Of a stretch of DNA of 50,093 bases, positions 35,354 to 35,779 are shown one piece after another. The DNA is taken from the NCBI GenBank assembly GCA_019112765.1, contig DXIU01000065.1, positions 1 to 50,093 on the forward strand. The letters run 5' to 3'. Below the pieces are notes generated by a model. That model was not told the origin of the DNA, did not search any database, and was given only the letters and a program-made list of their open reading frames with translations. Made by a program: the position numbers and the translations under genes. The stretch comes from Candidatus Mediterraneibacter norwichensis. Its GTDB lineage: Bacteria; Bacillota; Clostridia; Lachnospirales; Lachnospiraceae. How positions within the stretch are numbered: position 1 is the first letter of the stretch; the number at the start of each line of letters is the position of its first letter.

Positions 35354-35382
35354 TTGAATGCGAAATGCGTATATGATAAAAT
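35354..35382 (+). promoter_or_regulatory. Toxin promoter
   Basis: TTGAAT-N17-TAAAAT; TSS expected near the left inverted-repeat arm at 35390. Confidence 0.6.
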
Positions 35383-35466
35383 AAAATACAGGGAAACCAG
35401 AGCCGGGCGGCTTACCCTCTGATCTTTCCGGAGGGACAGCCCCTCCGTATAAAAGAAAGGAGGGGG

Positions 35467-35565
35467 ATGCCAGTGAATGTTACATATTCGGACTTGATCC
35501 AGTTGTTAATTTTCATTGTCGCCCTTGTTGGTCTCTGTTACGAGATTTTCAAGGGAAAGAAATAG
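35467..35565 (+). CDS. Putative holin-like small hydrophobic toxin, 32 aa
   Basis: MPVNVTYSDLIQLLIFIVALVGLCYEIFKGKK; AAAGGAGGGGG SD; below the ORF-track length cutoff. Confidence 0.85.
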   Translation: MPVNVTYSDLIQLLIFIVALVGLCYEIFKGKK

Positions 35566-35650
35566 GCCGCCACTACTCCCAATAGTGACGGCTGCCCGTT
35601 AGGGCGGTAGTTTATCGTACGGGGTAAGCCGCTTCTGGTTTCCCTTTTCT
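35566..35650 (-). ncRNA. Candidate antisense antitoxin RNA
   Basis: Minus strand TTGCGT(35685-35680)-N17-TATATT(35662-35657); runs into hairpin GCCGTCACTA/TAGTGGCGGC then CCTATTTCTTT. Confidence 0.6.
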
Positions 35651-35779
35651 ATGTATAATATAGCATATGGCAGACTGACACGCAAGTTTTTTGCGTATTG
35701 TGTCGGGGGATACAGAAAGGATATAATTTTTCTGTATTATTACAGATAGAAGAATTCTTACATCTAAGGGGAAAGAGAC

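What the first reader, a model, noticed from the sequence alone, without database searches (positions are those of the whole stretch)
35354..35696. Unannotated chromosomal type I toxin-antitoxin locus with convergent promoters and mirrored ends
Directly visible: a 32-aa ORF with an SD and a single hydrophobic helix with a basic tail (MPVNVTYSDLIQLLIFIVALVGLCYEIFKGKK); a + promoter (TTGAAT-N17-TAAAAT) and a convergent - promoter (TTGCGT-N17-TATATT) flanking it; and AGGGAAACCAG...CGGCTTACCC (35390-35417) mirrored by GGGTAAGCCG...CTGGTTTCCCT (35622-35645). The predicted toxin mRNA and antisense RNA would therefore start with nearly the same sequence, and the toxin mRNA 5' and 3' ends can pair. 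Established: sequestering end-to-end pairing is common in type I toxin mRNAs. Inference: the antisense RNA ends at hairpin 35566-35592 and is the antitoxin.
Basis: partly seen in the sequence, partly recalled or inferred. Interest (0 to 1): 0.82.

Follow-up and report, generated by a model that had tools for sequence, protein, structure and literature searches.

The report
Conserved type I toxin-antitoxin RNA locus
A 260-base locus in a gut Lachnospiraceae bacterium encodes a tiny membrane toxin and, from the opposite strand, a short RNA that very probably silences it; it is an unrecognised clostridial branch of the Bacillus BsrG/SR4 kind, repeated across the family, and its two matching ends form a predicted RNA switch at the toxin's ribosome-binding site.

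Summary
The ORF, both promoters and the mirrored ends are conserved in 136 aligned Lachnospiraceae loci, and conservation stops at the outer promoter elements. The ORF is under purifying selection (pN/pS 0.15). The two ends co-vary (own pairing -39.5 against -33.5 kcal/mol shuffled; sister pairs 30:5), and mismatches are G-U rather than A-C (155:40), so selection acts on pairing in the toxin mRNA, not on a DNA terminal repeat. Decay is one-sided: in 299 genomes 21 loci kept the antisense gene after losing the toxin; none was found with intact toxin promoter and ORF but no antisense gene. That is the mark of a needed antitoxin. Folding predicts that end-to-end pairing makes the ribosome-binding site easier to open (3.6 kcal/mol), and that occupying the mRNA 3' end frees a leader anti-SD that closes it (8.9). 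The same computation reproduces the shift reported for bsrG/SR4. BsrG and BsrE hit the same Pfam family (Hol_Tox) and also have pairing ends. So this is a divergent, widespread branch of BsrG/SR4-like type I systems, distinctive in that one mirrored arm serves as toxin terminator and antisense 5' end. Expression and toxicity could not be tested.

The parts
35354..35382 (+). toxin promoter: -35 TTGAAT, 17 nt, extended -10 TATG-TAAAAT
   Evidence: TTG and TATG.TA.A.T conserved in the 136-locus alignment
35388..35466 (+). toxin mRNA leader (start inferred from the promoter, about 35388-35390)
   Evidence: conserved block; start site inferred
35390..35417 (+). 5' mirrored arm AGGGAAACCAGAGCCGGGCGGCTTACCC
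   Evidence: covariation
35414..35420 (+). leader anti-SD ACCCTCT; predicted to pair either with the mRNA 3' end or with the SD
   Evidence: folding; inference
35429..35446 (+). inner leader hairpin CGGAGGG/CCCCTCC next to the SD
   Evidence: conserved CGGAGGGg.taaCCCTCC
35457..35465 (+). Shine-Dalgarno AAGGAGGGG
   Evidence: AAAGGAGGG conserved
35467..35565 (+). toxin ORF, 32 aa, one hydrophobic helix, basic tail; remote member of Hol_Tox (PF16935)
   Evidence: pN/pS 0.15 in frame against about 1.45 in the other frames
35566..35592 (-). antisense RNA terminator hairpin followed by CTATTTCTTT
   Evidence: most conserved non-coding element; median -19.3 kcal/mol
35560..35650 (-). predicted antisense RNA antitoxin, about 90 nt; covers the toxin 3' UTR and the stop codon
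   Evidence: covariance model R1 matches here (G000:C135 35558-35688, E 8e-14); ends inferred
35622..35645 (+). 3' mirrored arm; also the toxin terminator hairpin (-8.6 kcal/mol) followed by TTTTC
35657..35685 (-). antitoxin promoter: -35 TTGCGT, 17 nt, extended -10 TGC-TATATT
   Evidence: AATATAgCAtAT and CAAG conserved in the alignment

Best explanation
A chromosomal type I toxin-antitoxin locus of the 3'-overlap, BsrG/SR4-like kind. The + promoter makes a mRNA of about 260 nt for a 32-aa single-helix membrane toxin. The - promoter makes an antisense RNA of about 90 nt complementary to the mRNA 3' end. The mRNA's own two ends are complementary. [quoted passage not shown] In the finished mRNA the 3' end captures that anti-SD, so the SD opens more easily. 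The antisense RNA, whose 5' end has nearly the same sequence as the mRNA 5' end, takes over the mRNA 3' end, releases the anti-SD, closes the SD again, and gives a duplex that RNase III can cut. Shown here: conservation, coding selection, coevolution of the ends on the + strand RNA, one-sided loss. Predicted: transcript ends and the SD switch. Inferred: toxicity, antisense expression, RNase III.
For: Conserved promoters, ends, hairpin and ORF in 136 loci. Coding: pN/pS 0.146 in frame, about 1.45 in other frames. Coevolving ends: own pairing -39.5 against permuted -33.5 (sd 0.34) kcal/mol; G-U 155 against A-C 40; sister pairs 30:5, p = 2e-5. Decay: of 25 antisense hits without an adjacent toxin hit in 299 genomes, 21 have a deleted, frameshifted or interrupted toxin, while all 7 strong toxin hits without an antisense hit are explained otherwise; among ORF-bearing loci 7 lost only the toxin leader/promoter and 0 lost only the antisense end. 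Hol_Tox includes BsrE (47.9 bits) and BsrG (34.5) and all 14 family members tested match it. SD-opening cost 3.6 (full) against 8.9 (3' end removed or shuffled) kcal/mol in 51 loci; the same direction in 15 of 18 distant Hol_Tox loci with different end sequences and in bsrG itself, 5.4 against 8.3, where a 4-to-8 bp extension is reported (PMC6562991).
Against: No RNA-seq, TSS or toxicity data. Promoter and terminator calls in the single sequence are near chance without the comparison. The SD switch rests on thermodynamic folding; an SD that still costs 3.6 kcal/mol (5.0 at the window locus) is not free, and in vivo 3'-end processing could matter. bsrE/SR5 and txpA/RatA are reported to act by mRNA decay only (PMC6562991), so translation control need not apply to every relative. 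The window protein alone is below the Pfam cut-off (18.1 against 23.3 bits).
Confidence: 0.8

Rival explanations
1. A mobile miniature element: the mirrored ends are DNA terminal inverted repeats used by a transposase, and the ORF is incidental.
For: Units recur at several sites per genome with edges near the arms (window 35388-35668 in many genus copies), up to 7 copies and tandem arrays.
Against: Conserved promoter elements lie outside the arms. Arm mismatches are G-U, not A-C (155:40), as expected for pairing in the + strand RNA and not for DNA repeats. The ORF is under strong purifying selection.
Confidence: 0.04
2. A small membrane or antimicrobial peptide gene (the 'holin-like toxin' reading) with a long-range mRNA structure, where the - strand promoter only tunes expression and is not an antitoxin.
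For: Pfam name Hol_Tox; holin-like peptides have been described as antibacterial (Tmp1, cited in PMC9045289).
Against: Antisense gene kept after toxin loss and no toxin-only loci. The one locus with toxin promoter intact and antisense promoter lost (L305) has an Arg inside the membrane helix and a deletion. BsrE and BsrG of the same family are experimentally studied type I toxins.
Confidence: 0.1
3. Type I locus in which the 5'-3' pairing locks the full-length mRNA in an inert form that is activated by 3' trimming, as in Hok or AapA.
For: 5'-3' pairing is reported to do this in aapA/IsoA (PMC6733600).
Against: Removing or shuffling the 3' arm makes the SD harder, not easier, to open in 93 of 102 loci and in 15 of 18 distant relatives.
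Confidence: 0.15

Closest known systems
bsrG/SR4 (Bacillus subtilis, prophage SPbeta)
   Same: Hol_Tox toxin; antisense RNA overlapping the mRNA 3' end; 5' and 3' mRNA ends form a main helix; occupying the 3' end extends SD masking (computed here; reported in PMC6562991).
   Different: In bsrG a separate terminator lies downstream of the pairing arm. Here the 3' arm is itself the toxin terminator and the antisense RNA starts at its outer edge, so both RNAs begin with nearly the same sequence. The toxin is shorter (28-33 aa) and about 20 bits weaker against Hol_Tox.
bsrE/SR5 (B. subtilis and plasmids such as pBS72)
   Same: Hol_Tox toxin (47.9 bits), pairing mRNA ends, 3'-overlapping antitoxin.
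   Different: SR5 is reported not to change the SD region and to act through mRNA decay (PMC6562991).
aapA/IsoA (Helicobacter) and hok/Sok
   Same: Small hydrophobic toxin, cis antisense RNA, 5'-3' long-distance mRNA pairing, masking of the SD during transcription.
   Different: There the long-distance pairing masks the SD and 3' trimming activates (PMC6733600); here the predicted effect is the opposite.
Clostridioides difficile CD2517.1-RCd8 and similar modules
   Same: Convergent, overlapping type I modules in Clostridia (PMC6563280).
   Different: The review says those toxins have no homology to known type I toxins. Here the family is Hol_Tox in Lachnospiraceae; I found no paper describing it.

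Membership tests
Hol_Tox (PF16935) | Protein scores over the curated cut-off | tested here: not met
   Window protein 18.1 bits, cut-off 23.3.
Hol_Tox (PF16935) | Homologous family matches the model | tested here: met
   All 14 aligned family members match at E <= 0.01, best 1.7e-7; BsrE and BsrG match the same model.
Type I TA, 3'-overlap (BsrG/SR4-like) | Short hydrophobic toxin with basic C-terminus, translated | tested here: met
   One hydrophobic stretch plus GKK tail; pN/pS 0.15. Translation itself not observed.
Type I TA, 3'-overlap (BsrG/SR4-like) | Convergent antisense gene complementary to the toxin mRNA 3' end | tested here: met
   Conserved - promoter and - terminator flanking the 3' UTR. 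Transcript not observed.
Type I TA, 3'-overlap (BsrG/SR4-like) | Antitoxin needed whenever the toxin is intact | tested here: met
   21 antisense-only loci against 0 toxin-only loci with intact toxin promoter and ORF. Evolutionary evidence only.
Type I TA, 3'-overlap (BsrG/SR4-like) | Toxin harms the cell; antisense RNA lowers toxin level | not testable with these tools
   Needs experiments.
BsrG/SR4 mechanism | Occupying the mRNA 3' end closes the SD | tested here: met
   Predicted by folding: 3.6 against 8.9 kcal/mol; window locus 5.0 against 10.1; bsrG control 5.4 against 8.3.
aapA/IsoA or hok/Sok mechanism | 5'-3' pairing masks the SD in the full-length mRNA | tested here: not met
   Predicted effect is opposite.
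Fst/par (RNA I/RNA II) | Shared bidirectional terminator between convergent RNAs | tested here: not met
   Each RNA has its own terminator-like hairpin, at opposite sides of the overlap. The par layout itself is recalled, not tested.
MITE / terminal-inverted-repeat element | Arms conserved as DNA repeats at the element's borders | tested here: not met
   G-U against A-C bias 155:40; conserved promoters outside the arms.

The most novel reading that the evidence does not exclude
The antitoxin works as a copy of the toxin's own leader. Both RNAs start with nearly the same sequence; the leader holds an anti-SD, the mRNA 3' end captures it to allow translation, and the antitoxin wins the 3' end back, so the anti-SD returns to the SD. 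The finished, untrimmed mRNA is the active form, opposite to Hok and AapA, and this logic is kept across Hol_Tox systems of Bacillota although the end sequences differ between lineages.
Probability: 0.45. Interest if true: 0.65.

Novelty: new variant of a known kind. Interest (0 to 1): 0.52.

Why it matters
Type I systems are hard to find by sequence. This branch has no Rfam model, scores below the Pfam cut-off in the window, and I found no paper on it in Lachnospiraceae, where about a fifth to a quarter of sampled genomes carry it, often in several copies. The coevolving ends give a sequence-only signature for finding such loci. They also turn a mechanism probed in one B. subtilis system (bsrG/SR4) into a prediction testable across many species, including its polarity relative to Hok and AapA.

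Tried and rejected
Rfam: only chance matches. NCBIfam: none. The search for related loci: query too short. tblastn and blastn of the Lachnospiraceae unit against phage and plasmid collections: no match, so no evidence for a plasmid or sequenced-phage home; six IMG/VR contigs carry the hairpin. A first covariation test on unrefined segments was noisy (own 3' end ranked first in only 12 of 136) and was replaced by element-restricted tests. I considered whether the 5'-3' helix alone is the + terminator with a 200-nt loop; a local 3' hairpin (-11.2 median against -5.4 shuffled) makes that unnecessary. One alignment call was a mistake with no result used.

Full report
WHAT IS THERE. The window lies in a 2.6-Mb genome of 137 contigs (G000:C135); named relatives carrying the same element are mostly Lachnospiraceae. 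The own genome has one copy.

CONSERVATION. A protein search of 299 genomes of the same family found relatives in 65, with up to seven copies per genome and tandem arrays. Together with a pattern scan of named genomes this gave 136 non-identical loci, which I aligned. Conserved, in order: TTG and an extended -10 on the + strand; GGGAAACCA.AG...GGCGGCTtACCC; CGGAGGG-loop-CCCTCC; GAAAGAAAGGAGG; the ORF; the hairpin GCCGCCACTACT...AATAGTGACGGC; gGGTAaGCCG...TGGcTTTCCC; and, read on the - strand, an extended -10 and a TTG -35. Nothing outside is conserved. The ORF frame has pN/pS 0.146; the other two frames give about 1.45. Copies in the genus align from about 35388 to 35668 at many sites, so the unit is modular.

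THE MIRRORED ENDS ARE RNA PAIRING. Restricting the test to the two arms, each locus pairs better with its own 3' end than with those of other loci (mean -39.5 against a permutation mean of -33.5, sd 0.34 kcal/mol). Mismatches that would be G-U in the + strand RNA number 155, those that would be A-C number 40; selection on DNA repeats would not give this bias. To limit the effect of shared ancestry I matched loci into 59 nearest pairs by ORF-region sequence. Of 47 with both arms different, own ends beat swapped ends in 30 and lost in 5 (p = 2e-5). These p-values ignore any remaining relatedness.

THE ANTISENSE GENE BEHAVES LIKE AN ANTITOXIN. A covariance model of the antisense unit, promoter included, searched in the same 299 genomes gave 99 hits at E < 1e-8. 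Twenty-five had no adjacent toxin hit. Reading them, 21 have a deleted, frameshifted, degenerate or interrupted toxin; three are at contig ends and one (L262) has an intact toxin that the protein search missed. Conversely, of 66 strong toxin hits 7 had no adjacent antisense hit: four at contig ends, two of a diverged subfamily with its own ends, and one (L053) without a toxin promoter or leader either. Among ORF-bearing loci scored by separate profiles, 7 lost only the toxin leader/promoter, 3 lost both sides, none lost only the antisense end. The one locus seen with toxin leader intact and antisense promoter lost, L305, has an arginine inside the membrane helix and a deletion. This one-sided decay is what an essential antitoxin predicts. 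Some losses may share ancestry, so the counts are not independent events.

HOW IT PROBABLY WORKS. In 102 loci the cost of opening the SD is 3.7 kcal/mol in the full-length mRNA but 8.8 when the last 45 nt are removed and 9.1 in a nascent leader. In a half sample, shuffling the 3' arm gives 8.9, so the effect is specific to its sequence; in the shortened form the SD is mostly paired with the leader CCCTCT. At the window locus the values are 5.0, 10.1 and 9.8. Eighteen distant Hol_Tox loci with other end sequences show the same direction in 15 and the reverse in none. For bsrG itself the computation gives 5.4 against 8.3 and a lengthened SD stem, matching the reported extension from 4 to 8 bp on SR4 binding (PMC6562991). 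I therefore propose that the antisense RNA, by taking the mRNA 3' end, releases the leader anti-SD. RNase III cleavage of the duplex is likely by analogy with B. subtilis and is inference.

RELATION TO KNOWN SYSTEMS. bsrG and two bsrE-like loci also have pairing 5' and 3' ends, although the simple inverted-repeat score for them is only marginal (21, 21 and 12 of 300 shuffles as good); the Limosilactobacillus locus tested does not stand out (65 of 300). More distant Hol_Tox loci in the phylum and in diverged Lachnospiraceae subfamilies mostly have clear mirrored ends with different sequences; a few do not score. So the architecture is older than this branch. What I did not find described is this branch itself, its scale in Lachnospiraceae, and the fusion of pairing arm, toxin terminator and antisense 5' end. 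The literature search covered open-licence PubMed Central only.

LIMITS. Transcripts, toxicity and antitoxin action are not observed. Start and end sites are inferred. The folding model ignores ribosomes, kinetics and proteins. Whether the window copy is active is unknown, though all its parts are intact.

Noticed in passing
L116, L130, L084/L250, L259, L267, L288: The toxin ORF is cut at the same point by foreign DNA ending ...CT(G/A)GTTTCAT(A/T)C, one with a TnpV-like ORF beside it: a mobile element seems to use the toxin gene as a preferred site.
   Followed up: partly
L019, L271, L274, L282 (contig ends in G114 and G269): Several copies break inside the antisense hairpin at the same foreign sequence (GCCGTCACATAATCACTTACTTTGCGTAAGATCC), as if an insertion sequence targets the hairpin.
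   Followed up: no
L019, L085, L149, L155, L275: A short insert (about ATATCATGCCCTTTGGGTAC) recurs between the inner leader hairpin and the SD; L015 and L190 carry larger inserts in leader loops that leave the stems intact.
   Followed up: no
L002/L057 (G181:C7) and L044 (G280:C11): Tandem arrays of three units, in L044 about 371 bp apart.
   Followed up: partly
L032-L036 (own genome, other contigs): Weak Hol_Tox-like hits elsewhere in the own genome, one over the cut-off but with a stop inside.
   Followed up: no
L197-L202 (IMG/VR contigs): Six viral or prophage contigs carry the conserved antisense hairpin; no match in GenBank phages or PLSDB plasmids.
   Followed up: no
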